From: a virus
IMG/VR virus record: IMGVR_UViG_3300042475_001727
Span: 1-37,911 of that record
Strand: one strand, 5' to 3'
Length of the DNA: 37,911 nt
In this document: one piece after another, positions 7,251 through 32,441 of the stretch
Layout: the number at the start of each line of letters is the position of its first letter
Numbering within the stretch: position 1 is the stretch's first letter
Program-made: the position numbers and the translations under genes
The notes under the pieces: generated by a model
What the model was told of the DNA's origin: nothing
The model's input: only the letters and a program-made list of their open reading frames with translations
The model's database searches: none

Positions 7251-7377
7251 CTTTCTTCTCCAGTTGTTCAAGTGATTTCTTCAGCCGCTCCATCAGGCGC
7301 TGCGCTTGGTTGTACTGCTTGACGGCGATGCGGAACTGCGCCTTCGTCGAGCGAATACGGTCTTTCAGGGTGTTCAT
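7201..7377 (-). CDS. Small coiled-coil hypothetical protein
   Basis: This 58-residue protein is highly basic and helical ([20 protein letters not shown]). ATG 7377 overlaps the helicase stop as ATGA, so it is translated with the helicase. Its last 50 bases overlap the next gene. No motif or catalytic residue is visible. Confidence 0.65.
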   Translation of the reverse strand: MNTLKDRIRSTKAQFRIAVKQYNQAQRLMERLKKSLEQLEKKDELARAKQKAKHADRG

Positions 7378-8654
7378 TTCAGGCTCTCCATTGCAATGTC
7401 GCTGACCGCCTGCTTGCTGTGCAGCGCGGCCCATATCTTCTCGTCCACCGTCTGGTTGGCGATCATGACGTAGCACCAGACGTCGCGGCGCTGCCCGGAT
7501 CGGTGCAGCCGTCCGTTGGCCTGCTCGAACAGCTCAAGGCTCCAAGGCAGGCTGAGCCAGACGATATGGTGGCCGCCGTGCTGGAGGTTGAGCCCGTGCC
7601 CGGCAGATCGCGGGTGCAGGCATAGAAGGCGTACTCGTCCGGCGTTCCAGTCATCAATGCTGTCAACTGTCCGGGCGTAAGGAAAACGTCGCTTGAGTTC
7701 ATGGAGTTCCTCGACAAAGTTGTAAAAGACAATCGTGTTGGCCTGCTGGTTCTCGGCCAGCAGCTCTTCGAGCCGGTCGAACTTGTGGCTGCTGAACCAG
7801 ACCGGCTCTGGCGTGTAGACGAACCCTGCGGCCATCTGCGACAGTTTTTGCGTCACCACGGCGGCGTTGATCGCCACCGCAGTCGCGTCCGGGAAGCGCG
7901 TCACGAAGTCCTTCTTCATGTCCTCGTACGGCTTGCGGTCGGGCAGGTCCAGCCGCACCTCGACCGTGTGCAGCGGCGGCAGCTTGTCCTTGTACTCGCC
8001 TGGCTCCAGCACGAAGGTAGCCGGCTTGATCCGGGCCATGACCTGCTCCAGCGCGCCGGGGCGCGGTTGCCAGTCGTTGTAATCCTTGTTGACGAGGTAG
8101 AAGTACTGTTGCTGGAACGCGCCCTTGCTGCGGCCTAGCAGCTTCTGGTCGATGATTTTGCACTGCCCGAAGACGTCCTCCAAGCCGTTGCTGGTGAAGC
8201 TGCCGGTCAGGCCCCAGCGGATCGGGCAGTCAAGCGCCTTGGCGAGCGCCTTGAACCTGGCGCCCGACGGGTTCTTCAGGCGCGTCAGCTCGTCGAACAC
8301 CACGCCATCGAAGGTGCTTAGGTCTTGCTCGGCCAGCCACTGGAGGTTGTCGTAGTTGGTCACGACGATCTCGCACCAGTAGTCGAGCGCCGCCTTGCGC
8401 TGCGTAGGTGTGCCGACCGCCACGCGCAGTTGCAGGCCGGGCGCCCACTTGGCGGCCTCGACCGGCCAGACGCTGGCGGCGACGCGCAGCGGGGCGACGA
8501 CGAGGAAGCGCCTGACGTGGCCGTCCCGCACCATGTCCTGCATGGCCGTCAGCGTGATCGCCGTCTTGCCCGCGCCGACCGGCGCCAAGATCATGGCGCG
8601 GTCGTGCTCGTACAGGAAGTCAGCCGCCTGCTCTTGGTAGGGTCTTAGCTCCAC
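7374..8654 (-). CDS. SNF2-type DEAD-box helicase
   Basis: Read from GTG 8654 this is a 426-residue superfamily 2 ATPase. Visible motifs are ELRPYQEQAADFL (2-14), Walker A APVGAGKT (24-31), VVAPLRVAASVWPVE for motif Ia (about 52-66), TNYDNL (99-104), the DEAD-box equivalent FDEL followed by RLKNP (120 onward), LTGS for motif III, and QANGRLHRSGQR for motif VI (about 378-389), which is typical of SNF2 proteins. GGGAG lies 8 bases before the GTG and the family's RPYQ motif begins right after it; the longer ATG start at 8780 would add unrelated sequence. Such phage proteins pair with the VRR-NUC nuclease encoded just upstream and probably act in replication or recombination as DNA translocases. 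Confidence 0.9.
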   Translation of the reverse strand: MELRPYQEQAADFLYEHDRAMILAPVGAGKTAITLTAMQDMVRDGHVRRFLVVAPLRVAASVWPVEAAKWAPGLQLRVAVGTPTQRKAALDYWCEIVVTNYDNLQWLAEQDLSTFDGVVFDELTRLKNPSGARFKALAKALDCPIRWGLTGSFTSNGLEDVFGQCKIIDQKLLGRSKGAFQQQYFYLVNKDYNDWQPRPGALEQVMARIKPATFVLEPGEYKDKLPPLHTVEVRLDLPDRKPYEDMKKDFVTRFPDATAVAINAAVVTQKLSQMAAGFVYTPEPVWFSSHKFDRLEELLAENQQANTIVFYNFVEELHELKRRFPYARTVDSIDDWNAGRVRLLCLHPRSAGHGLNLQHGGHHIVWLSLPWSLELFEQANGRLHRSGQRRDVWCYVMIANQTVDEKIWAALHSKQAVSDIAMESLK

Positions 8655-8959
8655 CTTTTTGTCTCCCAGTTGTAGCGCCGGCTTTGGATGTACGCAGTCA
8701 TCTCTTCGTCGGTCATGCGCTGCGTGACGGGCGGCACATACGGGTCGGGCGGGTACACGAATTCCGTAGTCTGATTCCACTCGTCGGCGATCTGCTTGGC
8801 GTGCGCCTCATCGGTCACCACAGCACCGCGCTTCTCGGCGAACGTCAACACGTTGACGCCGTTCTTGTTCATCACGCCCCACCATGTCGGGCCGACCTGC
8901 TCGGCGCGGTACGGGCCAACGGCAAAGTACTTAGCCGGCAAGGCTGTTAATCCATCCAT
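8645..8959 (-). CDS. Conserved phage hypothetical protein
   Basis: This 104-residue protein starts MDGLTALPAKYFAVGPYRAE and has aromatic-rich segments (GPTWWGVMNKNGVNVLTF) and a charged C-terminus. ATG 8959 has AAAGGAG 7 bases upstream. It overlaps the VRR-NUC gene by 29 bases and the helicase start by 10, so it is embedded between them. I recognise no domain; context suggests an accessory of the helicase/nuclease pair. Confidence 0.65.
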   Translation of the reverse strand: MDGLTALPAKYFAVGPYRAEQVGPTWWGVMNKNGVNVLTFAEKRGAVVTDEAHAKQIADEWNQTTEFVYPPDPYVPPVTQRMTDEEMTAYIQSRRYNWETKRWS

Positions 8960-15370: not shown

Positions 15371-17677
15371 ATGGATTTCTTGGAGTATATGACAAGTCTT
15401 GCCCCTGAGGGCGAAACGTTTCTGATTGTCAGACAAAAACCACGCTTGCAGGACGGCGAGATACAGCTACACGTTGACGGGGCAGTCAAGGCCACCTGGC
15501 CGGCGTTCTTGCCGAACAAGCCCCGGCCCGACGGGCAGTCGTGGTACGGCAACACCGCCAGCTTCATCCTTGACCGCTTTACCGACGGCAAGATCAGCGC
15601 CAGCGCCGCCAACTGCGAGTATGTCTTGTGCATGGTGCTGGACGACGTGGGCGACCCCGAGAAGGCGCCCAAGACGCCGCCCCTGCCCCCGACTTGGGTC
15701 ATGGAGACGAGCGAGGGCAGTTACCAGTGGGGCTACGCCTTCACCGAGGAGCAGCCCACCAAGGCCGAGTACAGCGCGGCCATCACGGCCATCGCTGCTG
15801 CCGGCTACAGCGACAAGGGCGCGGTCAACCCCGTGCGGAACTTCCGACTGCCTGGCAGCGTCAACCTGAAGCCCGGCCGTGACGGGTTCGTCTCTCGGCT
15901 GGTTGAGTTCCACCCCGAGCGCCAGTTCAGCCTGCCGCAAATCTGCGAGGCGCTCGGCGTTACCCCGGCCGAGGAGGCCGCAACCTTTCGCCCGATCCGC
16001 GTCTCAGACGACGGCGCCGATGACGTGCTGGCCTGGCTGTCCGATCAGGGGCTGGTCCTCAGTAAGCCCAACGCTCAAGGCTGGGCCGGCATCGTCTGCC
16101 CTAACTCCAGCGAGCACAGCGACGGCAATCCCGAGGGGCGCTATAACCCGTCCATGCGGGCGTTTTGCTGTTTGCACTCGCACTGCATCGATCTGGATAG
16201 CGTGACGTTTCTCAAGTGGGTCGGCGAGCAGGGCGGGCCGCACCATGCGCCGGGCCTGCGCGATGAGCTGCTGGCGTCGATGATGACTGACGCGCTGGGC
16301 AAGCTGCACCCCACCGAGGCGTTCCCCGACGAGGCCAAGCGCGTGATCGCCGAGGTCGAGCGCAAGGAGCTGGGCCGCACCGAGAAGGCCGACTGGTATA
16401 AACGGTTCTGCTACGTCCAAGAGGGTGACCATTACTTCGACCTTCAAGACCGCCGCGAGATCAGCCGCAGCACGTTTAACGCGCTGTTTCGCCATATCGA
16501 GTGCCGCTCGCTGTTCGGCAAGCGCCCTAAGATTGAGGCCAGCTACTGCTTTGACGAGAACCGCCAAGACATGGGCGCCCGCGCCCTCGTCGGCATCACC
16601 TACGCCGCCGGCGAGGGCGTGCTAGTGGCCCGTGACGGTGACGTGTACGGTAACCGCTGGCGCGACGCGCGCCCGGCCGTGGGCGCTGCCGGCGCCGATA
16701 TCTCGCCCTGGCTGGACCACTGCGCGGCGCTGGTGCCCGAAGTCAGCGAGCGCGAGCATATTTTTAACGTGATGGCCTACAAGGTCCAGCATCCCGAAAT
16801 CAAGATCAATCACGCGGTCTTGCATGGCGGCGATCAGGGATGCGGCAAAGATACCCTTTGGGCGCCGTTTATCTGGGCGGTGTGCGGGCCGCAGCTCAAG
16901 AACCGGGGCCTGCTCGACAACGACACGCTTGGGTCACAGTGGGGCTACGCGCTGGAGTCGGAGATTTTGATCCTCAATGAGCTGAAGGAGCCCGAGGCCA
17001 AAGAGCGCCGCGCCCTGGCGAACAAGCTCAAGCCTATCATTGCTGCGCCGCCCGACATGCTCACGGTCAATCGCAAGGGCCTGCACCCGTATGACTCGCT
17101 CAATCGCATGTTCGTGCTGGCGTTTTCCAATGACCCGGTGCCGATCACAATCGACAGTCAGGACCGCCGCTGGTTTTGCGTCTGGTCCTCGGCGCCTCGC
17201 ATGGCGCCAGACGCTGCCGCCCGACTGTGGGCATGGTACAAGGCCGGCGGCTATGAGGCCGTCGCCGCTTGGCTGCGCGCCCGTGACGTGTCGGCGTTCA
17301 ATCCTTCGGCTGCGCCGGCCTGGACTGAATTTAAAGCAAACCTGGTCGAACATGGCATGAGCATTGCCGAGAGCTACCTGGTCGAAATGATGCGCGCGCG
17401 TCGGGGTGAATTCGCGCGCGGCGCCGTCGGATCGCCCTTCCACGCCTTGTGTGACCGCGTAGCAGCCTCGGCGCCGTCTGGCGTGAAGGTGCCGCAAGCT
17501 GCGCTCCTGCACGCGCTCAAAGAGGCCGGGTGGGTTGACTGTGGCCGGCTCAAATCGCGCGCCAACGACACGAAGAAGCACATTTTCTGCGCGCCCGACA
17601 TGGTGCAGCATAGCCGGTCCGAATTGCGCGATCTGGTGGAAGAGCCCGCATCGCCGCTCATGGTGCGGGTGAAGTAA
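15371..17677 (+). CDS. Primase-helicase (RepB-primase-like N-terminus, superfamily 3-type ATPase)
   Basis: This 768-residue protein has a primase-like N-terminal domain (to about 180), including the block NPVRNFRLPGSVNLKP that I associate with RepB-type phage primases. A Cys/His cluster follows (Cys243, His249, Cys266, Cys267, His269, His271, Cys272), which may bind zinc. The C-terminal ATPase has Walker A GGDQGCGKDT (486-495) and a Walker-B-like ILILNELKE stretch, then RRALANKLKPIIAAPPDMLT and a FSNDPVPITIDSQDRRW sensor region. This matches the DUF5906-type primase-helicase family. It should unwind and prime at the fork for the polymerase. AAAGGAG lies upstream of the ATG. Confidence 0.88.
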   Translation: MDFLEYMTSLAPEGETFLIVRQKPRLQDGEIQLHVDGAVKATWPAFLPNKPRPDGQSWYGNTASFILDRFTDGKISASAANCEYVLCMVLDDVGDPEKAPKTPPLPPTWVMETSEGSYQWGYAFTEEQPTKAEYSAAITAIAAAGYSDKGAVNPVRNFRLPGSVNLKPGRDGFVSRLVEFHPERQFSLPQICEALGVTPAEEAATFRPIRVSDDGADDVLAWLSDQGLVLSKPNAQGWAGIVCPNSSEHSDGNPEGRYNPSMRAFCCLHSHCIDLDSVTFLKWVGEQGGPHHAPGLRDELLASMMTDALGKLHPTEAFPDEAKRVIAEVERKELGRTEKADWYKRFCYVQEGDHYFDLQDRREISRSTFNALFRHIECRSLFGKRPKIEASYCFDENRQDMGARALVGITYAAGEGVLVARDGDVYGNRWRDARPAVGAAGADISPWLDHCAALVPEVSEREHIFNVMAYKVQHPEIKINHAVLHGGDQGCGKDTLWAPFIWAVCGPQLKNRGLLDNDTLGSQWGYALESEILILNELKEPEAKERRALANKLKPIIAAPPDMLTVNRKGLHPYDSLNRMFVLAFSNDPVPITIDSQDRRWFCVWSSAPRMAPDAAARLWAWYKAGGYEAVAAWLRARDVSAFNPSAAPAWTEFKANLVEHGMSIAESYLVEMMRARRGEFARGAVGSPFHALCDRVAASAPSGVKVPQAALLHALKEAGWVDCGRLKSRANDTKKHIFCAPDMVQHSRSELRDLVEEPASPLMVRVK

Positions 17678-19504: not shown

Positions 19505-19584
19505 AATGGATAGTGTGGGGGTTATGTGTGGATAGCGTTTTTGACGTGGCGTTGTCCACGTCGCGCCATAGGGGAAATGGGCTA

Positions 19585-19600
19585 TGTGGACAATGTGGAC
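19585..19600 (-). repeat. DnaA-box-like cluster 1
   Basis: TGTGGACAATGTGGAC: two adjacent boxes read on the minus strand, inverted relative to the other clusters and beside the AT-rich stretch. Confidence 0.75.
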
Positions 19601-19636
19601 TATTAGTCTATAAGTCTAGAGAGAGATAAAAAATAT

Positions 19637-19654
19637 ACTGTATGGATATACAGT
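19637..19654. promoter_or_regulatory. Palindrome in the AT-rich stretch
   Basis: ACTGTAT-GGAT-ATACAGT, 7-bp arms with a 4-base spacer: a possible operator or hairpin within the presumed unwinding element. Confidence 0.5.
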
Positions 19655-19715
19655 AGTCACAATGGGCCGCGCCGTCAGCCCGCGCCCCAAAGGGGGTTGA
19701 CCGACTTGAAATCGA

Positions 19716-19741
19716 TTGTCCACATGTCCACATTGTCCACA
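19716..19741 (+). repeat. DnaA-box-like cluster 2
   Basis: Three tandem boxes: TTGTCCACA, TGTCCACA (preceded by A) and TTGTCCACA. Confidence 0.75.
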
Positions 19742-19791
19742 AACCCCACGCCCTTGGCCCACGTCACGCAAGCCTTGCGCTTGACCGGCCA

Positions 19792-19808
19792 TTGTCCACA
19801 TTGTCCAC
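19792..19808 (+). repeat. DnaA-box-like cluster 3
   Basis: TTGTCCACATTGTCCAC, two adjacent boxes (the second lacks the final A) in the first 67-bp unit. Confidence 0.75.
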
Positions 19809-19858
19809 GCGACTGGCGCGCAGCCGCGCAGCACGCAAGCCTTGCGACTGCCAGGTGA

Positions 19859-19885
19859 TGGTCCACATTGTCCACATGGTCCACA
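19859..19885 (+). repeat. DnaA-box-like cluster 4
   Basis: Three tandem 9-mers: TGGTCCACA, TTGTCCACA, TGGTCCACA, in the second 67-bp unit. Confidence 0.75.
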
Positions 19886-19932
19886 GCCGCCGCCCAAGCG
19901 GCGCGCGGCCAGGTGCTGCCGGCCAAAACCGA

Positions 19933-19958
19933 GGGGGGGGAGGGGGCCGGGGACCGGG
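19933..19958 (+). other. G-quadruplex-forming sequence
   Basis: Runs of 8, 5, 4 and 3 G residues separated by A, CC and ACC. This meets the usual four-run rule. It lies between the box array and the terminase promoter. Confidence 0.6.
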
Positions 19959-20023: not shown

Positions 20024-20467
20024 ATGTTCGAGACCCTGCCATATGAGCCGCGTCAGTTGCAAGCGACTGAGGACCGGCTGCATCGCATCTACAAGGCTGC
20101 CAAGCTTGGCCTCAAGGGCGACAACCTGGCGCTGGCCGCAGGCATGTTGCCCAAGGAGTACGCCAGGCTCAAGCAGTTTGACGAGATCGCGGAGTACGCC
20201 GAACTCAAGGGCCGCGCCGAGGGCGAGTTGGAGATGAGTCACCTGCTGCACGACGCCGCAGCGCAGGGCGACGCCAAGGCGGCGCTGGCGATCTTGCAGA
20301 ACGTCCACGGCTGGGTAGCCAAGCAGGCTATTACAGTAGACGTGAACCAGTCCATCAGCATCACCGCCGCGCTACAAGAGGCCGAGCGACGCGTCATCGA
20401 TGTGATCGAGAACAACCCAAGCCAAGTGCTACAACATGCAGACCACACGTTACAGCGCGCAGGATGA
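20024..20467 (+). CDS. Terminase small subunit
   Basis: This 147-residue protein precedes the large terminase and overlaps it by 32 bases. The N-terminal half (about 10-60) looks like a helix-turn-helix DNA-recognition domain (KAAKLGLKGDNLALAAGMLP then YARLKQF). A helical oligomerisation region and a C-terminal tail follow. It would recognise the packaging site and load the large subunit. ATG 20024 has no Shine-Dalgarno sequence; an open frame extends upstream through the origin repeats but is not gene-like. Confidence 0.8.
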   Translation: MFETLPYEPRQLQATEDRLHRIYKAAKLGLKGDNLALAAGMLPKEYARLKQFDEIAEYAELKGRAEGELEMSHLLHDAAAQGDAKAALAILQNVHGWVAKQAITVDVNQSISITAALQEAERRVIDVIENNPSQVLQHADHTLQRAG

Positions 20468-21968
20468 GCAGGAGCTGATGGCTCGGCTATGGAGCCCGGC
20501 CATCAAGGACAACCCGCTGGCGTTTGTGATGTTCGCGTATCCGTGGGGCGTCAAGGGCACGCCACTGGAGCACTTCACTGGCCCGCGCAAGTGGCAGCGC
20601 GAGGTGCTCGCAACTATGGCCGAGCACATCAAGAAGAACGGCGGCAAACTGGACTTCGACGTGCTGCGCCTGGCGGTCAGTTCGGGCCGGGGTATCGGCA
20701 AGTCGGCGTTGGTCAGTTGGATCACGGACTGGATGCTGTCCACGCGCATTGGCTCGACGACCATCATATCGGCCAACTCAGAAAGCCAGCTCAGATCAAT
20801 CACCTGGGCCGAGCTGACAAAGTGGCTGGCGATGTCGATCAACAGCCATTGGTTTGAAGTAAGTGCTACCAGACTGATGCCGGCCAAGTGGCTGACGGAG
20901 CTGGTCGAGCGCGATCTGAAGAAAGGCACCAGATACTGGGGCGTTGAGGGGCGGCTGTGGTCGGCCGAGAACCCGGACGCCTACGCTGGCGTGCACAACT
21001 TCGACGGCGTGATGGTGATATTTGACGAGGCCAGTGGTATCGACGACTCGATCTGGGCGGTGACCAGCGGATTCTTTACTGAGAACACGCCAAACCGCTT
21101 CTGGCTGGCGTTTTCCAACCCGCGCCGCAACACTGGGTATTTCTACGAGGCGTTTAACAGCAAGCGGGAGTTCTGGACGTCGAAGATTGTGGACGCTAGG
21201 ACGGTCGAGGGCACCGACAAGGCGGTTTACGAGCAAATCATCGCGGAATACGGGCCGGACTCCTCACAAGCGCACGTCGAGGTGTACGGTCAGTTCCCGA
21301 ACGAGGGCGACGATCAGTTCATCAGCATCGGCGTGGTCGATGAGGCGATGAAACGGGCCAAGCATATGGACCAGTCGGCACCAATCGTGATCGGCGTAGA
21401 CCCGGCGCGGTTCGGGGCAGACGCTACGGTCATCGCCGTGCGGCAGGGGCGCGACATCGTCAAGCTGATCCGGCACCGGGGCGACGACACCATGACGGTG
21501 GTCGGGCACGTCATCGACGCGATTGAGGAATTTAAGCCGTCGCTGGTCAACATCGACGAGGGCGGGCTGGGGGCGGGGGTCGTGGACCGGCTAAAAGAGC
21601 AGCGGTACAAGGTCAGGGGCGTGAACTTCGGCAACAAGGCCAAAAACCCCATTATGTATGGCAACAAACGGGCTGAAATGTGGGGTGATATGCGCGATTG
21701 GTTAAAAACAGCCAGTGTGCCCAACGACAGATTCTTGAAAAGTGATCTGATTTCGCCTAAGATGAAGCCCGATTCGCGTGGTACGATCTATCTAGAGTCC
21801 AAAAAGGACATGAAAGCCCGTGGTCTGGCCTCACCGGACGCAGCAGACGCCATCGCGCTGACGTTTGCGTATCCTGTCGCCAGCCGAGAGTATCGTGAGC
21901 CAAAGTCACACATTCGCACCGCAAGCGGGTATAGTGGCGGGGCTGTAACCAGTTGGATGGGGGCGTAA
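20436..21968 (+). CDS. terL: Terminase large subunit
   Basis: This 510-residue packaging motor has an ATPase domain with Walker A SGRGIGKS (83-90) and Walker B VMVIFDEAS (192-200, Asp197-Glu198). The RNase H-like nuclease domain has IGVDPARFGADAT (Asp322), VNIDEGGLGAGVVDRL (Asp374, Glu375) and SPDAADAIALTFAYP (about 468-482). All key acidic residues are present. It cuts and pumps DNA through the portal. The ATG lies inside the small-subunit gene, and the stop overlaps the next start (TAATG). Confidence 0.95.
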   Translation: MQTTRYSAQDEQELMARLWSPAIKDNPLAFVMFAYPWGVKGTPLEHFTGPRKWQREVLATMAEHIKKNGGKLDFDVLRLAVSSGRGIGKSALVSWITDWMLSTRIGSTTIISANSESQLRSITWAELTKWLAMSINSHWFEVSATRLMPAKWLTELVERDLKKGTRYWGVEGRLWSAENPDAYAGVHNFDGVMVIFDEASGIDDSIWAVTSGFFTENTPNRFWLAFSNPRRNTGYFYEAFNSKREFWTSKIVDARTVEGTDKAVYEQIIAEYGPDSSQAHVEVYGQFPNEGDDQFISIGVVDEAMKRAKHMDQSAPIVIGVDPARFGADATVIAVRQGRDIVKLIRHRGDDTMTVVGHVIDAIEEFKPSLVNIDEGGLGAGVVDRLKEQRYKVRGVNFGNKAKNPIMYGNKRAEMWGDMRDWLKTASVPNDRFLKSDLISPKMKPDSRGTIYLESKKDMKARGLASPDAADAIALTFAYPVASREYREPKSHIRTASGYSGGAVTSWMGA

Positions 21969-30816: not shown

Positions 30817-31608
30817 ATGACTGAAGAAGTCCAACAAGCCTTAGCGGAAGTTGAATCCGCGCCAGCACCCGAGGCGACGGCCGCCCCGGAGAATGCACAA
30901 AACGCGCCGGAAGTAGCTGAGAGTCAACCCGAGCAGACGCCCGAGGAGAAGAAATTCACCCAGGCCGAGATCGACGCGATGATCAGCAAGCGCCTTGCCA
31001 GAGAGCAGCGCAAATGGGAACGTGAGCAGCAGGCTAAACTTGCCCAACCGCAAGCGCCAAGAGAAGTCCCGCCTATCGAGCATTTCGAGTCCCCTGATGC
31101 CTACGCGGAAGCGTTGGCCGTCAAAAAGGCTGAAGAACTGCTCGCGCAGCGTGAGTTCCAACGGCAGCAGGCTGAGATTAACGACGCTTACCACGACCGT
31201 GAGGAAGAGGCCAGGGCCAAGTACGACGACTTTGAACAAGTCGCCTACAACCCGCAGCTTCGAGTCACTGACGTGATGGCCGAGACAATCAAGGCGTCCG
31301 ACATGGGGCCGGACCTAGCCTACTGGCTGGGAACCAACCCGAAGGAAGCTGATCGCATTTCCCGCTTGGCACCTCTTTTGCAGGCCCGAGAGATTGGGAA
31401 GATTGAGGCCAAACTTGGCTCCAATCCTCTTGTGAAACCAACTACGTCTGCGCCTGCGCCTATTTCGCCTGTTACCGCACGCACCAGTGGAAGTTCGTCC
31501 TACGACACGACTGATCCTCGCTCGACGAAGACCATGACTGACTCGCAGTGGATTGAAGCTGAACGTGCCCGGCAGATGAAGAAGCTGCAAGCGCAAATGA
31601 ACCGCTAA
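30817..31608 (+). CDS. Scaffolding protein
   Basis: This 263-residue protein is typical of podovirus scaffolds: an acidic, Pro/Ala/Glu-rich N-terminus, then long charged helices (KFTQAEIDAMISKRLAREQR; REFQRQQAEINDAY), a Pro/Ser linker and a basic C-terminal helix (WIEAERARQMKKLQAQMNR) of the kind that binds coat protein. It lies directly before the coat gene, as gp8 does in P22. It organises procapsid assembly and leaves before DNA packaging. Confidence 0.88.
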   Translation: MTEEVQQALAEVESAPAPEATAAPENAQNAPEVAESQPEQTPEEKKFTQAEIDAMISKRLAREQRKWEREQQAKLAQPQAPREVPPIEHFESPDAYAEALAVKKAEELLAQREFQRQQAEINDAYHDREEEARAKYDDFEQVAYNPQLRVTDVMAETIKASDMGPDLAYWLGTNPKEADRISRLAPLLQAREIGKIEAKLGSNPLVKPTTSAPAPISPVTARTSGSSSYDTTDPRSTKTMTDSQWIEAERARQMKKLQAQMNR

Positions 31609-31632
31609 CTTTTTTAAAGGAATTTTTTGATC

Positions 31633-31685
31633 ATGGCTAACTCAATCTTGACAATTGACATGATCACCCGGAAGGCTCTGGAGAT
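31633..31685 (+). CDS. Major capsid protein, exon 1
   Basis: Exon 1 encodes MANSILTIDMITRKALE and the first two bases of Ile18. AAAGGA lies about 13 bases before the ATG. Read straight on, the frame reaches a stop after MANSILTIDMITRKALEIN. Joining 31685 to 32442 gives KALEILENNLVLT in one frame, matching the start of this P22-like coat family (MITREALRVLENNL-type). Last exon bases GGAGAT pair with the intron guide sequence (P1). Confidence 0.88.
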
Positions 31686-32441
31686 TAACTAATCGGTCTC
31701 CCCTAGGGGTAACCCTAGGAAAAAAACTGTGTGAATTCGGTGGACGTCATGTAAGATGATTACATGAAAACACCGAGCCAAGCCAAAAGTGAGAATAGTG
31801 AGGTAGATGTCGAGGCCAAGCGGGCTAAAAACCGCGAAGCCGCAGCCAGATACCGAGAGCGCAACCGAGAGAAGTTCAATCAACGTATGCGTGATTGGCG
31901 TGAAGCAAACAGGGAGAAGTCCCGAGAGCATTCGCGTGAATGGCGCAACCGGAAGATTGCAAATGGAACGCCAGAGGAAGTGGCCGCGATACGCGCCGCA
32001 GAGTCTGAGAAAACCAAGCGCAATCAAGACCGGTGCAGAGAGCAAGTGTTTGAAGCCTACGGCGGATACAAGTGCAACTGCTGCGGAGAGACTGAGCGAA
32101 TGTTTTTGTCGATTGACCACATCAACAATGATGGGGCTGAGGAACGAAGATCAGGCAAGTACAACGGTGGAGGGTCAGCCTTCTACAATTGGCTTCGCAA
32201 GAGCAAGTTTCCGCAAGGCTACCAAGTGTTGTGTATGAATTGTCAAGTCGGCAAACACAGAAACGGCGGCGTTTGTCCTCACCAGCGGAAGGTGTAACGA
32301 CTATCCCGTAAGGGAGTACAGCCAAGTGGCTGGAAGCGCACAGCCCCTCGCAAGAGGGTGAAGAGATAGTCTGCTCTGCATGGTGACATGCAGCAGCCCG
32401 AAAGGGCGGTCAAGGCGTAACGAACCTTGGCGAACATTTGG
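31686..32441 (+). ncRNA. Group I intron (IA-type) in the coat gene
   Basis: A 756-nt intron. P1: exon GGAGAT (31680-31685) with GTCTCC (31696-31701), a U-G pair at the splice site. P2: 31702-31708/31713-31719, GTAA loop. P3: 31727-31733/32337-32343. P4: TCGGTG 31737-31742/CACCGA 31771-31776. P5: 31748-31754/31760-31766. P7: GACTAT 32299-32304/ATAGTC 32366-32371. P7.1: 32305-32314, GTAA loop. P7.2: 32320-32331. P8: CCCTC-GCAA-GAGGG 32345-32358. P9: about 32376-32393, GTGA loop. P9.1: CCC-GAAA-GGG 32397-32406. The intron ends in G 32441. P7.1/P7.2 indicate subgroup IA. It should self-splice with a guanosine cofactor. Confidence 0.9.
31764..32297 (+). CDS. Intron-encoded HNH endonuclease
   Basis: This 177-residue protein has a basic helical N-terminus with repeats (ARYRERNREKFNQRMRDWRE, then ANREKSREHSREWRNR). 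The C-terminal HNH domain comprises CNCCGETE, LSIDHINNDGAEERR (His-Asn-Asn), FYNWLRKSKFPQGYQVLCMN and CQVGKHRNGG; two Cys pairs flank the active site. It probably cuts intron-less copies of the coat gene to drive homing. The ATG lies in the P5 helix and the TAA ends one base before P7. There is no clear ribosome-binding site, so expression may be low or depend on intron folding. Confidence 0.88.
   Translation: MKTPSQAKSENSEVDVEAKRAKNREAAARYRERNREKFNQRMRDWREANREKSREHSREWRNRKIANGTPEEVAAIRAAESEKTKRNQDRCREQVFEAYGGYKCNCCGETERMFLSIDHINNDGAEERRSGKYNGGGSAFYNWLRKSKFPQGYQVLCMNCQVGKHRNGGVCPHQRKV

What the first reader, a model, noticed from the sequence alone, without database searches (positions are those of the whole stretch)
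19527..19898. DnaA-box-like array suggests a host-DnaA-dependent phage origin
About ten 9-mers of TTGTCCACA type occur as doublets and triplets in a gene-free region next to an AT-rich stretch. They differ by one base from the classic box TTATCCACA; TTGTCCACA itself is the known preferred box of actinobacterial DnaA. A lytic phage with its own polymerase and primase-helicase but a bacterial-style origin would be of interest. Box polarity flips between cluster 1 and clusters 2-4.
Basis: partly seen in the sequence, partly recalled or inferred. Interest (0 to 1): 0.8.

Follow-up and report, generated by a model that had tools for sequence, protein, structure and literature searches.

The report
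Phage origin read by its helicase
The repeats that look like bacterial DnaA boxes are most likely the start site for this phage's DNA replication, but they appear to be read by the tail end of the phage's own primase-helicase: in related phages the repeat word changes, and three amino acids of that protein change with it.

Summary
The array is real: 11 boxes within one mismatch of TTGTCCACA lie in 334 bp (surrogates never exceed 3 in 350 bp). Left boxes point one way and right boxes the other, around the least stable 50 bp of the whole 37.9-kb record. This looks like an iteron origin. It is probably not a DnaA origin. Relatives with near-identical terminase and 96%-identical primase-helicase keep the layout and AT-rich core but carry a different word (ATGACCCAA instead of TTGTCCACA). 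Across 107 loci, word class matches three residues of the phage primase-helicase without exception: K728/R730/D733 with TTGTCCACA (47/47), A728 with G/A/S730 and P/Q/S733 with ATGACCCA (60/60). Eight of eight phylogenetically independent contrasts agree. No column of the polymerase, exonuclease or terminases, and no small gene between helicase and array, tracks the class. The three residues sit in the predicted wing of a C-terminal winged helix. Best reading: a self-loading primase-helicase initiator that reads tandem iterons, as in P4 and PICI/SaPI replicons, here in a P22-like phage lineage that has repeatedly changed origin word and wing together. Binding and initiation themselves are inferred.

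The parts
15371..17677 (+). Primase-helicase gene, 768 aa: N-terminal archaeo-eukaryotic-type primase, NrS-1/D5-like helicase (DUF5906; Walker A GGDQGCGKDT), C-terminal winged helix. Proposed initiator.
   Evidence: DUF5906 E 4e-10; RepB_primase 1.3e-3, below cut-off; NrS-1 6k9c/6k9e E 1e-9
17363..17641 (+). Codons 665-757: C-terminal winged-helix domain, proposed iteron-binding domain
   Evidence: Model pLDDT 83.5 with order H-E-H-H-E-wing-E-H; structural matches mostly winged-helix proteins, best Z 7.0
17552..17575 (+). Codons 728-735: wing loop holding specificity residues K728, R730, D733
   Evidence: Perfect association with box class in 107 loci; between strands 722-727 and 736-740
19552..19560 (+). 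Lone left box TTGTCCACG
19585..19602 (-). Left iteron doublet (TTGTCCACA, TAGTCCACA)
   Evidence: aligned box-for-box with TTGGGTCATATTGTCA in class-B relatives
19600..19649 (.). AT-rich tract, proposed melting region; least stable 50 bp of the record
   Evidence: identical in class-A and class-B relatives but for a base or so
19636..19655 (.). Dyad TACTGTATGGATATACAGTA in the conserved core
19716..19741 (+). Right iteron triplet (TTGTCCACA, ATGTCCACA, TTGTCCACA)
19792..19809 (+). Right iteron doublet (TTGTCCACA, TTGTCCACG)
19859..19885 (+). Right iteron triplet (TGGTCCACA, TTGTCCACA, TGGTCCACA)
20024..20467 (+). Small ORF upstream of TerL, taken as terS by position (flanking gene, control)
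   Evidence: Position next to TerL; no Pfam or PHROG match; columns do not track box class
20436..21968 (+). Terminase large subunit (flanking gene, control)
   Evidence: PHROG 2, E 3.6e-40; columns do not track box class

Best explanation
The region is an iteron-type replication origin of a P22-like phage. The phage primase-helicase (15371-17677) binds the 9-bp repeats through its C-terminal winged helix, with the wing residues K728, R730 and D733 setting which word is read. Two opposed sets of boxes flank a ~115-bp segment holding an AT-rich melting tract; assembly of helicase on each set would melt the tract, load two oppositely directed hexamers, and the fused primase would prime, after which the phage family-A polymerase extends. 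SHOWN by sequence: the array, the opposed layout, the instability, the conservation of layout and core, the co-variation of word and wing. INFERRED: direct binding, melting, hexamer loading, initiation.
For: (1) Array and melting tract; layout of left '--', AT-rich gap (median 112-118 bp), right '++' common in both main word classes, with the least stable 50 bp inside the largest gap in 39/46 class A and 43/56 class B loci. (2) The word switches as a set between close relatives while the core stays almost identical. (3) Word class against helicase residues: A = K728/R730/D733 in 47/47, B = A728 + G/A/S730 + P/Q/S733 in 60/60; only columns 728, 730, 733 reach 100% of the class entropy, next 66%. 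(4) The rule found on one set held on later-fetched loci: 22 K with A, 13 A with B, no crossed case; 28 K and 1 A fell in other word classes. (5) Classes change at least 16 times on a tree built without the C-terminus; 8 of 8 independent A/B contrasts agree, p 0.008. (6) Finer code: with R730 the base at position 9 of the word is C in 713/806 sites, without it 53/631; D733 goes with GTCCACA, T733 with GACYCACA. (7) Controls: best columns of pol 29%, exo 33%, gp12095 12%, TerL 16%, TerS 16% of class entropy; no small gene between helicase and array above 17%. (8) The residues lie in the wing of a predicted winged helix.
Against: No binding, footprint or replication data. The C-terminal fold match is generic (Z <= 7, no family hit). 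The origin is ~1.9 kb past the helicase gene, beyond small opposite-strand genes, not directly after it as in PICIs. GC skew shows no turn here. 13 of 156 loci gave no clear word by the classification used and one was mixed; three KRD helicases with G or N at 734 (L133, L134, L141) and their kin L138 have degenerate words, and one KRD locus was classed C, so 728/730/733 are not the whole code. L176 carries both words with a class-B helicase. For class A against C and B against C the residue association is confounded with phylogeny.
Confidence: 0.83

Rival explanations
1. Host DnaA binds the boxes and opens the origin; the phage supplies polymerase and primase-helicase downstream.
For: TTGTCCACA is the high-affinity DnaA box of Mycobacterium and Streptomyces (PMC4285127) and one base from TTATCCACA; AT-rich tract beside the boxes.
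Against: Close relatives keep the array but with ATGACCCAA, ATGACYCACA or ATAGCCCACA words that are not DnaA boxes; word tracks phage helicase residues. DnaA box words are well conserved in bacteria, so a DnaA origin should not flip words at least 16 times among these phages.
Confidence: 0.06
2. The helicase C-terminus (or the boxes) serves transcription control or partition at this intergenic region rather than initiation.
For: The array sits between a minus-strand small-gene block and the plus-strand terminase block, where promoters are expected.
Against: The co-varying protein is a primase-helicase; opposed sets around the least stable DNA of the record fit melting. No small gene tracks the word.
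Confidence: 0.08
3. The repeats are a packaging (pac) site for the small terminase.
For: They lie just upstream of the presumed terS, as packaging sites often do.
Against: TerS and TerL columns carry at most 16% of the A/B class entropy; phages with opposite words share 97-100% identical TerS and TerL.
Confidence: 0.03

Closest known systems
PICI/SaPI Rep (Pri-Rep) replicons of phage satellites
   Same: Initiator with helicase (and sometimes fused primase); two sets of short iterons flank an AT-rich tract (PMC6092414); SaPI Rep reads its origin with the C-terminal domain (cited in PMC7581432).
   Different: Here in a phage with a P22-like structural gene set, not a satellite; origin ~1.9 kb downstream of the gene rather than directly after it; 9-bp abutting words; structural kinship to SaPI PriRep1 weak (7pds E 0.019).
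Phage P4 alpha protein and its origin
   Same: Primase, helicase and winged-helix origin-binding domain in one protein binding origin repeats (described in PMC4234260).
   Different: P4 alpha has a Toprim (DnaG-type) primase; here an archaeo-eukaryotic-type primase. Not compared directly by sequence or structure.
Vibrio cholerae PLE RepA_N and its origin
   Same: Origin iterons and DNA-binding domain of the initiator swap together between close relatives; a phage nuclease (Odn) targets one type (PMC8263062).
   Different: RepA_N is not predicted to be a helicase or primase (PMC7145576) and reads with its N-terminal domain; two replicon types described there, at least five words here.
NrS-1 phage primase-polymerase
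   Same: AEP-type primase plus ring helicase of the same fold family (6k9c).
   Different: Two copies of an 8-nt recognition site are proposed as the NrS-1 origin (PMC7102993); no iteron array is described in the passages read.

Membership tests
Host-DnaA-dependent origin | 9-mers match a known DnaA box | tested here: met
   TTGTCCACA is the actinobacterial box
Host-DnaA-dependent origin | DnaA boxes conserved in close relatives | tested here: not met
   Array kept, word replaced by ATGACCCAA and others
Host-DnaA-dependent origin | DnaA binds and is required | not testable with these tools
   Needs host and protein
PICI/P4-type origin with self-loading primase-helicase | Initiator holds a hexameric-type helicase domain | tested here: met
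   DUF5906, NrS-1 helicase 6k9c E 1e-9
PICI/P4-type origin with self-loading primase-helicase | Primase fused to or beside the helicase | tested here: met
   Structural match to S-2L PrimPol 6zp9 (E 8.9e-5) and RepB' 3h25 (E 4.4e-4); RepB_primase in Pfam is below its cut-off
PICI/P4-type origin with self-loading primase-helicase | C-terminal winged-helix DNA-binding domain | tested here: met
   Model with winged-helix order, pLDDT 83.5; matches generic, Z <= 7
[quoted passage not shown]
PICI/P4-type origin with self-loading primase-helicase | Origin immediately 3' of the initiator gene | tested here: not met
   1.9 kb downstream beyond small opposite-strand ORFs
PICI/P4-type origin with self-loading primase-helicase | Initiator C-terminus matches its own iterons | tested here: met
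   Perfect co-variation in 107 loci
PICI/P4-type origin with self-loading primase-helicase | Homology to SaPI Pri-Rep or P4 alpha | tested here: inconclusive
   7pds weak; P4 origin-binding domain not among listed matches, which excludes nothing
PICI/P4-type origin with self-loading primase-helicase | Initiator binds the iterons, melts the tract and drives replication | not testable with these tools
   Needs purified protein and an ori plasmid
PICI (satellite) | Satellite without a full set of its own structural genes | tested here: not met
   Terminase and portal present; many further structural-looking ORFs
pac site | Recognition element co-evolves with TerS | tested here: not met
   TerS columns <= 16% of class entropy

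The most novel reading that the evidence does not exclude
These phages hold a natural recognition code: a few wing residues of a primase-helicase (728, 730, 733, with 724 and 734 as modifiers) dictate the origin word (at least five words seen), and phages repeatedly exchange wing and all ten or so boxes together as a two-part module that leaves the melting core untouched. The pressure would be conflict, such as origin-directed nucleases, satellites that borrow the initiator, or co-infecting relatives.
Probability: 0.4. Interest if true: 0.78.

Novelty: new variant of a known kind. Interest (0 to 1): 0.64.

Why it matters
It corrects a tempting error (DnaA-like boxes taken as a DnaA origin) and gives a likely initiator, binding domain and specificity residues that can be tested with single proteins and short oligos. 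With at least 16 natural changes of word it offers a system in which to learn how an initiator and about ten scattered binding sites change together without losing replication, a long-standing puzzle for iteron replicons. It also extends an origin layout described as unique to PICI satellites (PMC6092414) to a large lineage of phages with their own structural genes.

Tried and rejected
Host-DnaA origin: rejected on word switching in relatives. Skew test: no turn at the array, neither support nor refutation. A small repressor or ParB-like gene: no ORF family between helicase and array tracks word class. pac site: terminases do not track. EM motif discovery drifted because TGTCCACA is close to its own reverse complement; word counts were used instead. 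Pattern scan GTCCACANNGTCCACA in viral contigs mixed what look like coding repeats with true arrays and was used only as a lead. No relative in genome contigs, so the host stays unknown. Pfam and PDB sequence searches with the C-terminal domain found nothing credible. The full-length model is poor overall (pLDDT 61), so the C-terminal domain was modelled alone. The P4 origin-binding domain was not among the structural matches listed; this shows nothing either way.

Full report
OBSERVATION. The array exists as described. Eleven boxes within one mismatch of TTGTCCACA lie between 19552 and 19885; the best 350-bp cluster in 300 surrogates had three. They abut at 8-9 bp. The doublet left of the AT-rich tract is on the minus strand, all boxes on the right are on the plus strand, and one lone left box is on the plus strand. 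The tract 19600-19649 is the least stable 50 bp of the whole record. No convincing gene lies over the array.

SETTING. The record is an IMG/VR virus contig of 37,911 bases with a portal protein (PHROG 156, E 1e-131) and terminase, a family-A polymerase, an exonuclease and a 768-aa primase-helicase. I call it P22-like from the gene set and from the annotation of the relative MW202483 (P22 coat, P22-like portal). The array lies 1.9 kb after the primase-helicase gene and just before the presumed terS.

RELATIVES. Searches with helicase and TerL gave several hundred related contigs. Upstream of terS, contigs split: many hold 7-16 TTGTCCACA-type boxes, many hold none. The latter are not empty. They hold an array of the same layout in another word, ATGACCCAA. 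The window's nearest relatives by helicase tree include four of the other class. In a DNA alignment of window and L122 (class A) with L124, L128 and L129 (class B), two separated blocks differ: the last ~45 codons of the helicase gene and the box clusters. The ~100 bp between left and right clusters is identical apart from a few bases.

CO-VARIATION. Array class was assigned from the array alone, with words chosen after seeing the first set. In 156 distinct loci: A (TGTCCAC) 47, B (TGACCYAW) 60, C (TGACYCAC) 35, mixed 1, none 13. For A against B, helicase columns 728, 730 and 733 carry all of the class information (47 KRD; 60 A-[GAS]-[PQS]); the next columns, 731 and 724, carry 66% and 63%. 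The rule came from the first set and was not broken by loci fetched later. On a tree of residues 1-670 the class changes at least 16 times; all eight independent A/B contrasts on well-supported branches agree (p 0.008). Polymerase, exonuclease, a further replication-cluster protein, TerS and TerL reach 12-33%, and no small gene in between exceeds 17%. This singles out the helicase C-terminus. Loci are metagenomic and partly near-duplicates, hence the use of contrasts.

FINER CODE. R730 goes with C at position 9 of the 10-bp word (713/806 sites against 53/631 without R730), which is what a direct arginine-guanine contact on the opposite strand would give (inference). With K728 and R730, D733 goes with GTCCACA and T733 with GACYCACA. 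Rare types: ARI with ATAGCCCACA, ARQ with ATAGCCAACA, MRP with ATGACTAACA. The 54%-identical relative MW202483 has, in the same place, AATGTAAAC words and a quite different wing. KRD proteins with G or N at 734 have degenerate words, so neighbouring residues matter.

STRUCTURE. The C-terminal domain is predicted with good confidence (pLDDT 83.5) as a winged helix; residues 728-735 form the wing between strands 722-727 and 736-740. Fold matches are mostly winged-helix proteins, several DNA-bound, at middling Z (best 7.0), so the fold class is supported but no particular family. The rest matches NrS-1 helicase and AEP primases.

MECHANISM. The layout ('--', AT-rich gap of ~115 bp, '++') is common to classes A and B, and the melting tract falls in that gap in 82 of 102 loci. 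The best reading is a self-loading initiator: primase-helicase binds both opposed sets through its wing, the AT-rich core melts, two hexamers load and the fused primase primes. Binding, melting and loading are inferred from P4 alpha (PMC4234260), SaPI Rep and Cch2 (PMC7581432) and PICI origins (PMC6092414).

KNOWN AND NEW. The principle (helicase C-terminus reads iterons; iterons flank an AT-rich tract) is known from PICI and P4. Paired swapping of origin and initiator specificity is known from PLE RepA_N, where an origin-directed nuclease is proposed to select for it (PMC8263062). What I did not find described, in a limited search of open papers: this system in a lineage of P22-like phages with AEP-type primase-helicases, at least five words, and a wing of three key residues tracking them.

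VERDICT. Origin: likely. DnaA: unlikely. Initiator: the phage primase-helicase, with strong comparative evidence and no biochemistry.

Noticed in passing
L176 (array region upstream of TerL): Class-B helicase (LAGP) and class-B array, followed on the right by nine class-A words: two word sets side by side, possibly a relic or an intermediate of a switch.
   Followed up: partly
L121 (MW202483.1) 31423-31719: A distant relative encodes a stand-alone DnaA C-terminal helix-turn-helix protein (Pfam Bac_DnaA_C, E 1e-17).
   Followed up: partly
L121 27644-28090 and L130 upstream of terS: HNH endonuclease ORF beside the array, between array and terS (L130 by eye only); a candidate origin-linked homing nuclease that could drive word switching.
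   Followed up: no
window 19933-19958: A G-rich run (GAGGGGGGGGAGGGGGCCGGGG) between array and terS is present in the relatives inspected from several word classes; role unknown.
   Followed up: no
class C loci such as L239: The word is 10 bp and the commonest box step 10 bp, against 9 bp in classes A and B.
   Followed up: partly
window 7374-8780 (-): SNF2/DEAD-type helicase gene on the strand opposite to the replication genes.
   Followed up: no
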